From contig JASANH010001723.1 of NCBI GenBank assembly GCA_030248295.1, positions 682,001-746,000 of the forward strand: 64,000 nucleotides of DNA, read 5' to 3'. A program made the translations under genes and the position numbers. The notes below the pieces were generated by a model that was not told the origin of the DNA, did no database searches, and saw nothing but the letters and a program-made list of their open reading frames with translations. Of the stretch, positions 10,786-21,707 are shown in pieces (positions within the stretch are counted from its first letter, which is position 1; each line of letters starts with the position of its first letter). The stretch comes from Mesodorylaimus sp. YZB2_4 (taxonomy: Eukaryota; Nematoda; Enoplea; Dorylaimida; Dorylaimidae).

Positions 10786-13109
10786 TTATATTTTCACAAT
10801 TTGATCGGGTCGGACACCAAAGAAATAAACTGGCCAATAGATTCCGTTAAACACAGCAAAAAGGGCAGGGAATAGGAACAAGCAGACATGATCGAGCACC
10901 TGAGCCGTCAGATGCCATTTCTTATACCTTTCCCTCATTCGGCTCGTATAGGAGCGGAAATTGGCAACGAGACGCCGATAAAACAATGGTTTCGATCGTG
11001 GTAATAATGAATCCTTTTCGGTGCCCCTCATAACACCCAGCACAGCGGCGCCAGCAGTCAATGGTGTCGATACTGGGGGAGGCGTGAAGGGTGGACTGGA
11101 GGATGGTGATGGAGCGGAGGCTGTCGCAGTCTGCGGCTGTGTGGGCACCGGTATAGACACTGCTGGAACGCAACTCTCCGACCTTCTTGTCTTTGCACGC
11201 CCCTGATCCGGATTTAACTTGTCGTGGCTATTGCTTAATAATTCTGTGACTGGACTGGGCTGCCTCTGTACATTTGTTGGTCGACTGGTGCCAGCTTGAA
11301 GACCCGATACTATGGACAGTCGGGGTCTGTTACGTACCATACGACGAAGGGCTTCGGCAGCCTTCATTTCCATACCACCAGTCCCGTTCTGCAAATTACG
11401 TTTGGCATCCGCCGCCGACTGCATGGCTTTTATGCGTTTCTTGGCTCTAACCATCTCCAACCATCTCTTGCACACTTGAGTGCCGAGCTCCCTCTCTCGC
11501 TGCCTCTGCAATAATTGACACACCATGGCCAGTTCGATGAGCGTGAAGAATATGAACGAGACGCACACGATCATCCAGACGTCCAAACACTTGATATAGC
11601 TCACTCTGGGGAGATGCTTGAGGACGGTGCCGAATTGAAACGTCAGTGCTAATAAGCTGCTTACACCCAAGGTAATACGGGCACTCACGGACCTGGCATC
11701 CAAGAAAAACCCGACCCAACTCGAGATCACTGTCAGCGTGGTGGGGAAATAGACTTGAAACAAATAAAATCCATAACGACGACTGAACGTGAATGTGACG
11801 CGCAGTTCGTCCCACAGTCCGTTCGGGTATTGGCTAAAAGAACAAGGCAGCGTAAAGTGAGAGCGCTCCTTTGTAAACAACTCTTATCTTCATACAGAGT
11901 TTGCCTAACGGCTGTGAAATCTTGTAGTTGGAAATCGGGGAGTTCCACCGGATTGATGAATGTGACCGGCTCCGAGTGCCATGACAATTCCACTTCCTGT
12001 TTATTGTAACTGTAACTTTCAAACACCAGCGAACACTCCTGGTGGTCGAACGGGAACATCTTCAAGTCCATACGACACGGTGCCTTCACCTTCATACGGT
12101 AGTTCGACCAGACCATGCCTGCAGAAAACGAGAATGCGAGTAGGCGCAGGTCATTTATTGCCTTTTTATGCAAATACGAAACAAGGTTAATTAGCATACT
12201 GTAGTTAACGTTAGGCACAGCTTGGCACTCCTTGTTTATCTAGCTTCGCAACTGGGGGTCGACCTGTCAAGGAGGGGAGCCTCATGCGTTGCCCACCCAT
12301 GTAGATAGCAAAGAAGCTTATAGGCACCTAACGACCATGCCTACTGTACAGTATGCAATGTTGATTATCGGGCAGTTTGCTCAAAGTCTTACTCCCCTCC
12401 CCCCCCCTTGGTGCACGCCGGGCATCCCCTCGACACCAATATTCGGGCCAAGGAACCACGGTTCTTTACTCCACACTCAAATATCCAACTGGGGTCTTAC
12501 CATCCTCATAAACGATGACAAACATATTCTCCGAAGGGGATTTGTGTATCTCTGCACTCTTTGAATTGATGATGCACGTGTCCGGGTTCCATAGTCTGTC
12601 TCTGAATTGCGACTTCAAAGTAATGTTTGTTGCGCATATGGACAGATTTCGAAAACTGAGACGTGGTTCAATCCTGAAACAAAAACCCCTTGCTGGAAGG
12701 CAGGAGCATAATCTGGCGCTCTTCGAACTGACCAAATCTCACTGTACATCAGATCGAGTTCGAAATCGGATGTCAGCTCAGAAATGGATGATATCTCCTG
12801 TACGTGTATTTCCATGGTGACGTTGACCCCGTACGGATCTGGCAGCAGGTGCTTATCGTATTTGTGCAACAAGGCCTCGATGATATGACTCAAGTTCATC
12901 ATATTCCGGTTACAATGCGCCAAGTGAGGATTCGCTCGGGTTGTCTCTTGCCCCGCACCCCCGAATTCCGACGGCAGCCCTGACGATTGCACCAAACTGC
13001 GCAAATCGCTTTGTTGCTTATATGGCTGAGCAACAACCTGAAAAAGTTGTGTTTGAATGCAGTGAGATGCGGGAAGCAAGAGCAAGGTAAATGAAAGTGC
13101 ACAAAGCAT
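10786..13109 (-). CDS. Cys-loop ligand-gated anion (chloride) channel subunit
   Basis: Pentameric ligand-gated channel subunit for the plasma membrane. Exons 13109-12733, 12673-12501, 12118-11896 and 11833-10786 join in phase, giving about 606 residues. The start ATG opens a signal peptide (MLCALSFTLLLLPASHC). The extracellular domain has the W-x-PRLSF loop, and the Cys-loop has exactly 13 residues between Cys198 and Cys212. M1 to M3 lie at about 279-300, 305-325 and 338-360. M2 carries SARITLGVSSLLALTFQFG, the anion-selective AR signature; the following LPRVSYIK-DVWM block resembles nematode acetylcholine-gated chloride channels (ACC/LGC-46 group). The M3-M4 loop is long, about 200 residues and rich in Pro and Ser. 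M4 is near the C-terminus. The ligand cannot be assigned from sequence alone. The exon 1 donor is GTCAGT; exon 3 ends at GTATGA. Confidence 0.9.
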
Positions 13110-18949: not shown

Positions 18950-18977
18950 GCGCATGTTAGTCGCAGCCCCGCGATGT

Positions 18978-19688
18978 CGGTGGTTACCCCGTGGGGGCAA
19001 CCATAGCTTACAGTATCATCCGCAGTGTGATGGTCAGGTCGAAAGATACAACAAAGTTTTGATCGATTGCACAGCCGTGTATACGAGTGCACATCAACAA
19101 GATTTAGACTTGTTTATTTCATTTGCTTTGTTCGCATTCCGCACGAGTGTTCATTCTTCGACTGGGTACTCACCTGCAATGCTCGTGTATGGGCGTGACA
19201 TGGCTTTTCCATTGGATCGCACGTTTGCGCTGGATAGCAGTCAACAATTTTTGCATATCGATTACGTGGTCCAGATGAAACAGCAGTTAGCGGAGGCGTA
19301 CACTGTAGTCACTCAGGAAATCACGAAGGCTCAACAAGCACAGGCTCGGCAGTACAACAAGTCGATTCATCAGATTCCCTTCAGAGTTGGCTCTCTGGTC
19401 ATGATCAGGCGTTTGGCGGCATCTCGAGGTTTATCGACCAAACTACTGGACCGTTTTTTGGGACCTTATCGTATTATCGCTTTGCCATCACCAGTCACCG
19501 CATGTATCCGACCTATCGTGCAACCTGGCGCGGACAAAGTGGTTCATGTCAATCACTGGACTGATTTTTGGGACCTTATCGTATTGTCGCTACCACCAAC
19601 TTCGCCTTGGTACAGTTGCCAAGGCCACTGTACTAAGACGAAGTTGGTGGCAAACCACATGCACCCGCGACAAAATCGGAATCGATAG
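18978..19688 (+). pseudogene. Ty3/gypsy integrase fragment (core end plus GPY/F)
   Basis: The frame contains the hallmark YHPQCDGQVERYN, whose Glu is the third catalytic residue of the DDE integrase fold, then an FRTSVHSSTGYSPAMLVYG block typical of Ty3/gypsy integrase. The GPY/F module (LDRFLGPYRI) follows at about 19446-19475. The Asp-Asp half of the active site is absent. About 110 bp after the GPY/F codons the same stretch (TTTTGGGACCTTATCGTATT) recurs in another frame, so the tail has suffered a local duplication. The frame stops at 19688, before the PWWP frame opens. Confidence 0.85.
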
Positions 19689-19700
19689 CAGCGTGTTCAG

Positions 19701-20070
19701 ATGATGCAGTGCAAGGTCCAATGTCGATGTCGAAGACGGGGATGAGGATCATTCGGATTACACTGGGTCAGTGACATATCAACCTGGATCTTTGGTATGG
19801 GCTAAAATGAAGTATCTGCCTTGGTGGCCTGCTGGCGTCTTGCCTGAACCGGAAGCGCTATGTCCCAAACCATCATCCAAAGGTCCGTGGGTCTTGGTCT
19901 GTTTCTTCAATGATCACGGCAGGCAGGCGTTTGTGCAGCAGAAAGATACTGTGGAGTATTTCGCTAACAAAGATCGACTTTTCCCGAAGAAACAGCACCT
20001 GCTAGTGGCTATGGCAGAACTGGAACAATTCGCGGAATCGCAAGCTCGCAATTTAGCTATAGAATCGTAG
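19701..20070 (+). pseudogene. PWWP domain frame within the Ty3/gypsy element
   Basis: PWWP domains bind DNA and methylated histone tails, notably H3K36me. The open frame starts after a stop at about 19699. An acidic linker (VEDGDEDHSD) leads into the domain proper: PGSLVWAKMKYLPWWPAGV with the full P-W-W-P motif coded at about 19819-19830, then a VLVCFFNDHG strand and a helical end (MAELEQFAES). The order of these elements matches the family. It sits downstream of GPY/F and upstream of the element's polypurine tract, the place chromoviral integrases keep their chromodomain. No ATG with good context precedes it, and the integrase frame differs, so a frameshift probably separates one original polyprotein. 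A nested host exon is the alternative. Confidence 0.8.
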
Positions 20071-20206
20071 TGATTTTTGCAGCTCTGATAGAACTTTGTG
20101 TGTTGTGTTTTCGGTTTAGCGGCGGCTGTCCGGAGTGTATTACTTAATTTCTGTTGTACTTCCAGAGTTTGAAATGATCACTGATCTTCATTTTTGTGTG
20201 ATTATA

Positions 20207-21109
20207 GATGAGTCACCATTTCGGGCGTCAGTATCGCCGGCGCCAGTCTGTCAGTCGTCCTCAATAACGCCTGGTAGGCGCATCTTCGGGACGATTCAAC
20301 CAATCGACCGACAACTATCGTGGACGGCTATCTTCAGGGGTTCTTATACCGATACCTCCCTCGGCCCGAGATCTTCCTCCCTTGCCGGGTCCTGGATCAG
20401 AGGATTTGGATCCACAATTCCCGAAATTCTGGGAGGCGCCTTTGGAGGGCACCACAGTGTCAAATCGAGAAAGGGATCTTTTGAAACGTGCTTATCGCAT
20501 CTACAGGTCCCCTGCCGTCCGCACCCTAGCGGATTTCGATAATTCTGAGCAGTCTCGAAAGAACCTGAGTGAATTTGAGCACTCCTCCTTGGTTTGGGCG
20601 GCTTGTTCCTTTTGGGAGGCGGGTCTGAATCGGAACAGATTCGAGTTCTTGTGCTTGCGATTCTTGGCTTTCCAGGGTCTAGTAAGGCATGAGGCGATTC
20701 CCCGTCTGGTCAAGCAGCGTCTTCGCCGTTTGAAGTTCGATTCTTTTGCGTGCGGTGCCTTGGTGGGGCCGCGGGAGGATCGGGATCGTACTTATCAACT
20801 CCTGGAGCCAGTTGAGGCTCGTTCAGAATGCTCCTTGCCGTCCTCATCCACAATTGCAATCGGTATATCGCCCGTGGGCGTAGGCCATCAACCGCCAGTT
20901 ATCAGTGGTCACCGTCACCCGAATCGGCTCAATTACCTCCTCATCGCCTCGCCTCTCAGTCTCCGAGTCCACGCTACGACCGTTTTCGTTCCTCCCGCCC
21001 TCGCTCACCATCTCCCTCCCGCAATGGTCAGCAATCAAGCCACGGTCGCAGGGACCAGCATAAGCCCAAAAGCCATCACCGTTCCCGCAGCAGTCGTCGT
21101 CGTCGTTGA
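20207..21109 (+). pseudogene. Basic, RS-rich ORF of the LTR element (unknown role)
   Basis: Starting at an ATG just after an acceptor-like TTATAG, the frame reads MSHHFGRQYRRRQSV, meets one TAA at about 20264-20266, then stays open through a Trp/Arg-rich region (EFEHSSLVWAACSFWEAG, LVKQRLRRLKFD). Near 20828 coding character passes to another frame that ends in an Arg/Ser-rich tail (RSRSSRRRR) and stops at 21109. It is a third ORF between pol and the 3' LTR. A basic tail could bind nucleic acid, as a nucleocapsid does, but I recognise no Gag zinc knuckle and no envelope features. At least two breaks separate it from an intact gene. Confidence 0.5.
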
Positions 21110-21220
21110 TAACGTTGCTTTTTCTTTTTTTCCTTTTTTGCCCCATACGGTCTTGGTTTTGTTTGTTTTTGCTTTCGATGTTTGAAGTGTTTCTTGGTGC
21201 ACAACGGGGTGTGCACATAC

Positions 21221-21232
21221 AGGAGGGGGCAT
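21221..21232 (+). other. Polypurine tract of the Ty3/gypsy element
   Basis: AGGAGGGGGCAT lies directly before TGTAGTGA. Such a purine run primes plus-strand DNA synthesis in LTR retrotransposons and marks the LTR start. Confidence 0.65.
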
Positions 21233-21707
21233 TGTAGTGATAATGGGGTTTATGGCCAAACCGGTTGCTCGTTAGCATAAGTCTCATTTATGAGTCTAAC
21301 CAGTTTGGGCCTGTCTCGTTCTTTGGTTCATGTGGGTGCCTTTTTCCCTACTCACTCTCTGTTGCTGCCGGTGCCAAGAACAGCCGCCTTATCTTCGTCT
21401 CTTGTCTACACGTAGACCGACCACCGGGTACCCGTGGCAAGGTAGGATATCTGCACGACTACAAGGGGACCCGGATTAGAGAGCCTCCCGCCCCCCTAAG
21501 GTCCTCCTCCTTTATCTATCCCGGAGGGATGAAGGGCGAGTCACCCACCGCTAGGAGTGCAAGGCGTAGAGAGAACTTGACCAAGTTCTCAGACGGCCAG
21601 AGTTAAACTCAGGGCCGACCGGCTTCCAGCTCTGCCAAATAAGCTGTAACACACGCCTTTCACCGCTACACTACCGAGGCGGTTTCTGCTCTTCTCTTGC
21701 TGCTGTA
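21233..21707 (+). repeat. Putative 3' LTR
   Basis: It starts with TGTAGTGATAATGG after the polypurine tract. The 3' edge is a guess, placed near TGCTGTAATGTA, because the partner LTR is not in the window. It holds no ORF of note. Confidence 0.45.

What the first reader, a model, noticed from the sequence alone, without database searches (positions are those of the whole stretch)
18950..20070. Ty3/gypsy integrase followed by a PWWP domain
The sequence shows an integrase end with GPY/F module, then about 100 codons later a complete PWWP domain (LVWAKMKYLPWWPAGV), then a polypurine tract and LTR start, so the PWWP lies inside the element. Chromoviruses carry a chromodomain at this place to steer integration to marked histones. 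A PWWP would point instead to H3K36-methylated chromatin, meaning gene bodies, much as host LEDGF does for lentiviruses. I know of no described Ty3/gypsy group with its own PWWP. This copy is broken by a frameshift.
Basis: partly seen in the sequence, partly recalled or inferred. Interest (0 to 1): 0.88.

Follow-up and report, generated by a model that had tools for sequence, protein, structure and literature searches.

The report
Nematode Ty3/gypsy integrases carry PWWP domain
A large and varied group of jumping genes in a nematode worm carries, fused to the enzyme that pastes them into DNA, a chromatin-reading PWWP domain, which may steer where they insert; such a fusion was not found in the papers and proteins that could be searched.

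Summary
The window copy is a 5'-truncated, decayed Ty3/gypsy element (about 18998-21463): integrase C-terminus, PWWP (Pfam E 2.1e-13), decayed third ORF, polypurine tract and 3' LTR. The host, most likely a nematode, holds 149 PWWP matches; 93 lie within 1.5 kb downstream, same strand, of a related Ty3 integrase. In at least 21 of 29 loci integrase and PWWP share one frame, with near-identical LTRs and 4-bp target duplications in many. The PWWP is under purifying selection (dN/dS 0.09-0.21 in five pairs), in some lineages weaker than on integrase. Six divergent lineages carry it; most form one supported clade, and one origin for all is not rejected. At least one related family lacks it. So it is an integral C-terminal module of integrase, where chromoviruses have a chromodomain. 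Tethering to H3K36-methylated nucleosomes is the likeliest function but is inferred: two of six lineages lack the key cage tryptophan, and insertion preference was not tested. No Ty3 element with its own PWWP turned up in the open-access papers or proteins searched.

The parts
18998..19557 (+). C-terminal half of a Ty3/gypsy integrase (late catalytic core to GPY/F module), 5'-truncated
   Evidence: 93.8-95.5% DNA identity to L028-L031 and L039; Integrase_p58_C E 7.5e-4, below cut-off
19555..19623 (+). Disrupted stretch: 38-bp duplicated piece plus bases unmatched in relatives; integrase and PWWP are in different frames
   Evidence: blastn against family A loci; ORF list
19624..19785 (+). Linker between integrase and PWWP
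   Evidence: alignment with family A
19786..20010 (+). PWWP domain (ORF 19705-20070 includes the tail)
   Evidence: PF00855 E 2.1e-13
20208..21109 (+). Decayed ORF3 (unknown protein, Arg/Ser-rich C-terminus) between PWWP and 3' LTR
   Evidence: homologous ORFs in L025-L028, L031, L036, L038, L039; no Pfam match to the window piece or to L025 and L039
21221..21229 (+). Polypurine tract
   Evidence: sequence; same place in other copies
21233..21463 (+). 3' LTR (TGTAG...CTACA)
   Evidence: 91.6-94.1% identity to the 5' LTRs of L029-L031 and L039

Best explanation
The window holds a decayed copy of one family within a radiation of nematode Ty3/gypsy LTR retrotransposons whose Gag-Pol polyprotein ends, after the integrase GPY/F module and a fast-evolving linker, in a PWWP domain. 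Shown: the fusion, its spread over divergent families, purifying selection, and integrase-type insertion of the elements. Inferred: the PWWP, still attached to integrase, docks the intasome on nucleosomes carrying methylated H3 (most likely H3K36me, typical of transcribed gene bodies) and so biases insertion, doing in cis what LEDGF/p75 does in trans for lentiviruses and what the chromodomain is thought to do for chromoviruses.
For: Pfam on pieces of one-frame polyproteins of 2153, 2104 and 1873 aa gives RT, RNase H, H2C2, rve and PWWP in order; integrase and PWWP lie in one frame in at least 21 of 29 loci. 96 of 163 related integrase places have a PWWP match within 1.5 kb downstream on the same strand, 93 of these 96 at 30-389 bp. 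Independently, 40 of 150 rve matches have a PWWP 599-751 bp downstream on the same strand, 0 upstream, 2 on the opposite strand. PWWP dN/dS 0.089-0.211 in the five pairs where it is defined and non-trivial; Fisher p 2e-10 to 3e-25 over five pairs. LTR pairs 94.9-100% identical in 14 loci; perfect 4-bp TSDs in 11 of these 14, read by eye. PDB matches are PWWPs of MSH6, LEDGF, NSD2/3, DNMT3B, HDGF. The W21-equivalent is kept in 11 of 14 and F44 in 13 of 14 aligned sequences; in PSIP1 both are cage residues, and W21A or F44A abolished binding, perhaps by unfolding (PMC3663649 passages).
Against: Family E has L and family K has A at the W21 position, so methyl-lysine reading is unlikely to be common to all lineages. 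Position 18 is aromatic in only 5 of 14. In some pairs the PWWP changes faster at nonsynonymous sites than integrase (L041/L043 pN 0.339 against 0.176; L043/L045 0.475 against 0.253). No binding data, no chromatin map, no gene annotation; insertion preference untested. The single-sequence AlphaFold model is too poor to show a cage (mean pLDDT 40.5). 67 of 163 related integrase places show no PWWP match nearby, 18 of them at least 60% identical to a PWWP-family integrase; whether these are truncations, contig ends or true losses was not examined.
Confidence: 0.6

Rival explanations
1. The PWWP is a general nucleosome or DNA tether without methyl-lysine specificity, raising integration efficiency or retention on chromatin rather than choosing gene bodies.
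For: Families E and K lack the W21-equivalent yet keep the domain; the E-family PWWP is under constraint (dN/dS 0.104). PSIP1 PWWP contacts nucleosomal DNA through a basic surface (PMC3663649 passages).
Against: W21 and F44 equivalents are kept in most aligned sequences across deep divergence.
Confidence: 0.25
2. The PWWP is used at another step (for example nuclear retention, protection of integrase, or expression of the integrated copy), or is released by the protease and acts separately.
For: Variable linker; no cleavage or localisation data exist here.
Against: Constant place after integrase in six lineages suggests it works with integrase.
Confidence: 0.12
3. Captured or nested host exon in a single broken copy, or chance adjacency.
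For: In the window copy the two parts are in different frames.
Against: Dozens of copies in six lineages, one-frame ORFs, tight spacing, purifying selection.
Confidence: 0.01

Closest known systems
Chromoviruses (Ty3/gypsy with a C-terminal chromodomain on integrase)
   Same: A royal-family chromatin reader fused after the integrase in the Pol polyprotein (chromodomain place: PMC3605345, abstract start)
   Different: PWWP instead of chromodomain; no Chromo match in the Pfam-scanned pieces, and by eye none of the 70 genomic Chromo matches lies within 2 kb of the 163 integrase places; whether the RT falls among chromoviruses was not tested
LEDGF/p75 (PSIP1) tethering of lentiviral integrase
   Same: PWWP reader linked to an integrase; the PSIP1 PWWP is among the better PDB matches
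   Different: LEDGF is a host protein acting in trans through an integrase-binding domain (PMC8149907 passages); here the PWWP is encoded in cis in the element
Ty3/gypsy families without PWWP (C657 family and L050 in the own genome; 81 outside relatives)
   Same: Related integrase: C657 45% identical to L022; RT and integrase matches in many of the 81
   Different: C657 shows no PWWP in the 0.6 kb read after integrase and its frame ends ...PYNLRPRTRQS; L050 (C132:156617) has no PWWP match near it (its downstream part was not read); none of the 81 lists PF00855, though several are fragments

Membership tests
Ty3/gypsy LTR retrotransposon (Metaviridae) | PR-RT-RNase H-integrase order | tested here: met
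   Pfam order in pieces of L022, L025, L032, L039; the protease match is just under its cut-off in L022 and above it in L025, L032, L039
Ty3/gypsy LTR retrotransposon (Metaviridae) | LTRs TG..CA with short target duplication, PBS and PPT | tested here: met
   14 loci with LTR pairs; 4-bp TSD in 11 of 14, the others one contig start (L025) and two unclear (L033, L034); TGG-starting PBS 0-4 bases from the LTR end (read by eye)
Ty3/gypsy LTR retrotransposon (Metaviridae) | Integrase with HHCC zinc finger, DDE triad and GPY/F module | tested here: met
   Invariant H6, H13, C43, C46; D75, D135, E171; G311 P312 Y313 in the 11 sequences aligned
PWWP domain family | Score above the Pfam gathering cut-off | tested here: met
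   51, 58.4, 56.7 and 48 bits in window, L022, L025, L032; cut-off 25.6; 148 of 149 genomic matches over it
PWWP domain family | Beta-barrel plus helices in a confident model | tested here: inconclusive
   Single-sequence model, mean pLDDT 40.5; not used for a fold search
H3K36me-reading PWWP | Aromatic cage (M15, Y18, W21, F44 in PSIP1) | tested here: inconclusive
   W21 in 11 of 14, F44 in 13 of 14, F or Y at 18 in 5 of 14, M at 15 in 5 of 14
H3K36me-reading PWWP | Binding to H3K36me nucleosomes | not testable with these tools
   needs binding assays
Chromovirus | Chromodomain at the integrase C-terminus | tested here: not met
   no Chromo match in Pfam-scanned pieces; none of 70 genomic Chromo matches within 2 kb of the 163 integrase places (compared by eye)
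Chromovirus | RT placed in the chromovirus clade | not tested
   no reference RT set at hand

The most novel reading that the evidence does not exclude
A whole radiation of nematode Ty3/gypsy elements carries its own H3K36me reader on integrase, a cis-encoded counterpart of LEDGF that sends insertions into transcribed gene bodies, and swaps this targeting module between elements by recombination (L047 and L049 share pol but differ sharply in linker and PWWP), with some lineages retuned or blinded by cage changes.
Probability: 0.45. Interest if true: 0.92.

Novelty: new variant of a known kind. Interest (0 to 1): 0.85.

Why it matters
Chromodomain integrases and LEDGF are the textbook cases of retroelements reading chromatin to choose insertion sites. 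A Ty3 radiation with a PWWP fused to integrase would add a further reader used in cis, pointing to active rather than silent chromatin, and would link transposons to the lentiviral strategy. Lineages with intact and altered cages in one genome, beside PWWP-less relatives, form a natural comparison for asking how a reader domain shapes insertion patterns, in a phylum where H3K36 methylation has a germline role (recalled).

Tried and rejected
Host exon or single-copy chimera: rejected. Chromodomain in disguise: rejected, Pfam gives PWWP and the PDB matches are PWWP proteins. Search for the fusion in other organisms: 81 outside integrase relatives, none listing PF00855 and none with a convincing match to a PWWP profile built from the elements (best E 0.29); two searches by the PWWP-side region gave no hit at E 0.01 (147 and 780 candidates); one IMG/VR scan with the integrase alignment confirmed no relative. 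These searches need shared short words and limit candidate length, and several of the 81 are fragments, so absence elsewhere is not shown. AlphaFold on the window PWWP alone: uninformative. SL1 search for host identity: uninformative, the control rang nowhere; Rfam scan of the window: no match. Host as nematode rests on 133 Col_cuticle_N matches; that this family is nematode-typical is recalled. Tree: the free ML tree does not hold all PWWP rows together (family E unplaced, two changes; one change in 16% of 200 bootstrap trees), but one clade is not rejected (AU p 0.427); FastTree shows one clade with support 87. The first tree run did not finish. Rows left out of the FastTree: 6 near-copies, L028 (no RT), and 13 outside proteins that failed the length filter. 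C657 (45% integrase identity, no PWWP) could not be put in the tree, so a loss or separate gains remain possible.

Full report
Observation. The window copy is a 3' fragment of a Ty3/gypsy element. Homology to full-length relatives begins at 18998 and ends at 21463-21466. It contains the integrase C-terminus (18998-19557), a disrupted stretch (19555-19623), linker and PWWP (PF00855 E 2.1e-13), a decayed third ORF, a polypurine tract and one 3' LTR (21233-21463). Integrase and PWWP are in different frames in this copy.

The family in the genome. The window's own genome is held (145,146,385 bases, 1067 contigs) and is most likely a nematode: 133 matches to Col_cuticle_N (that this family is nematode-typical is recalled). 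The window PWWP ORF has 69 tblastn-type matches there and the Pfam PWWP model 149, 148 of them over the cut-off (173 candidates, 150 scored). Long loci were taken for 20 places and shorter ones for 9 more. For ORF-based comparison I used the 21 of these 29 whose longest ORF carries both integrase and PWWP. The other 8 (L029, L030, L031, L035, L037, L038, L039, L040) were left out; some of them keep part of the integrase in frame with the PWWP, while L039 has the PWWP in another frame. Pfam on pieces of natural ORFs gives protease, RT, RNase H, H2C2, rve and PWWP in L022 (2153 aa), L025 (2104 aa) and L032 (1873 aa); the protease match of L022 and the gag match of L025 are just below their cut-offs; CCHC knuckles match in L022 and L032.

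Not chance adjacency. Of 150 scored rve matches (526 candidates), 40 have a PWWP 599-751 bp downstream on the same strand, none upstream on the same strand, and 2 on the opposite strand within 2 kb. With integrase pieces of two families as queries (115 of 915 and 116 of 849 candidates scored), 96 of 163 distinct integrase places have a PWWP within 1.5 kb downstream on the same strand, 93 of them at 30-389 bp, and 93 of 149 PWWP places are so explained. The remaining 67 integrase places have none: 39 are under 40% identical to the queries (other families), but 18 are at least 60% identical, among them C432 (99%) and C47 (96%). I could not read those, so truncation, contig ends and loss are not separated. 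The remaining 56 PWWP places may be decayed elements, other families or host genes; they were not examined.

Mobile elements. Of 20 long loci, 16 show a direct repeat pair; 14 were taken as LTR pairs (94.9-100% identity; L028, with an 85% pair of 143 bp, and L035 were left out). Read by eye, 11 of 14 have perfect 4-bp target duplications, one begins at a contig start, two are unclear. LTRs run TG..CA, a TGG-starting primer-binding site follows, and a purine-rich tract precedes the 3' LTR in the clear cases. Integrase alignments of 11 sequences keep H6, H13, C43, C46, D75, D135, E171 and GPY.

Selection. Pairwise dN/dS of the PWWP is 0.090 (L022/L025), 0.127 (L041/L042), 0.211 (L041/L043), 0.089 (L047/L049) and 0.104 (L032/L033); in three of these dS is above 2, so the ratio is rough, and in five pairs of the 13 it is undefined by saturation; three pairs of recent copies have 0-1 changes in the PWWP. 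Integrase in L041/L042, L047/L049 and L032/L033: 0.153, 0.162, 0.095; RT: 0.286, 1.088 (only five differences) and 0.077. Linker values, where more than one change is seen, are 0.28-1.6. At nonsynonymous sites the PWWP equals integrase in the A/C/D pairs (for example pN 0.198 against 0.191) but is faster in L041/L043, L043/L045 and L044/L047 (0.339/0.176, 0.475/0.253, 0.537/0.378). Excess of synonymous change in the PWWP: Fisher p from 2.4e-10 to 3.1e-25 in five pairs.

Origin. By my grouping the sampled elements fall into six lineages (A/C/D, E, F/G/H/J, I, K, L/P). A FastTree of RT to rve with 50 rows puts all 14 PWWP rows in one clade (support 87) and the own element L050, which has no PWWP match near it, outside. 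A smaller ML tree gives a clade of eight PWWP rows (96/99) with family E unplaced; one clade for all ten is not the best tree but is not rejected (AU p 0.427). The outside rows were chosen by similarity to L022, and C657 (45% integrase identity, no PWWP, frame ending ...PYNLRPRTRQS) is not in the tree. PWWP identity between lineages is 17-41%, so the association looks old. L047 and L049 have third-position identity of 0.90-1.0 in all but one 40-codon block before the end of integrase (0.75 in that one and in the block at the GPY/F end), falling to 0.38-0.55 in linker and PWWP: a recombination that exchanged the C-terminal module is the simplest reading.

Function. The nearest solved relatives are MSH6, LEDGF/PSIP1, NSD2/3, DNMT3B and HDGF PWWPs. 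PMC3663649 (passages) names M15, Y18, W21 and F44 as the PSIP1 cage, reports no binding by W21A and F44A (possibly by unfolding), and describes a DNA-binding basic surface. In 14 aligned element PWWPs, W21 is kept in 11 (L in the two family E rows, A in the family K row), F44 in 13, position 18 is F or Y in 5, and position 15 is M in 5. PMC8149907 (passages) describes LEDGF PWWP binding H3K36me3 and a tethering model for HIV-1, and reports that LEDGF fusions with other readers redirected integration. From this I infer an in-cis tether; methyl specificity is likely for most lineages and doubtful for E and K. Insertion preference could not be tested.

Novelty. Of 81 outside integrase relatives from 5.8 billion proteins none lists PF00855, a PWWP profile finds none convincingly in them, region searches found nothing, and IMG/VR found nothing. 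Seven PMC searches with PWWP as a term and one on reader domains without it listed, as far as titles and abstract starts show, papers on LEDGF and HIV, host PWWP proteins, Ty3 elements in general and unrelated topics; two searches showed only 30 of 434 and 15 of 52 papers. Passages were read in four papers; the others were not opened. bioRxiv, subscription journals and Repbase were not searched, so the claim is limited to these sources. The elements meet the Ty3/gypsy features tested, resemble chromoviruses in domain layout, and fail the chromovirus chromodomain test.

Noticed in passing
window 20208-21109; L025:6840-7829, L028:924-1838: A third ORF of about 300-360 aa follows the PWWP in families A and D, while in family C only about 0.4 kb separates PWWP ORF and LTR; in the window it starts right after an acceptor-like TTTTTGTGTGATTATAG, and it has a conserved core, an Arg/Ser-rich C-terminus in several copies and no Pfam match.
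   Followed up: partly
L047, L049: Two elements share nearly identical RT to integrase but have strongly diverged linker and PWWP, suggesting exchange of the C-terminal module by recombination.
   Followed up: partly
G000 contigs C78, C128, C174, C192, C538, C111, C372, C847 and others: rve matches lie at about 707-718 bp from contig ends, several in very long ORFs: many contigs end inside the same retroelement, probably assembly breaks in a high-copy family.
   Followed up: no
G000 C682, C268, C851, C1059: A different integrase family (319-aa frames, 249 aa on C1059) has a Chromo match about 520 bp downstream, so chromodomain-linked integrases seem to exist in the same genome.
   Followed up: no
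window 10786-12239, minus strand: Neurotransmitter-gated ion channel gene (Neur_chan_LBD and Neur_chan_memb) upstream of the element.
   Followed up: no
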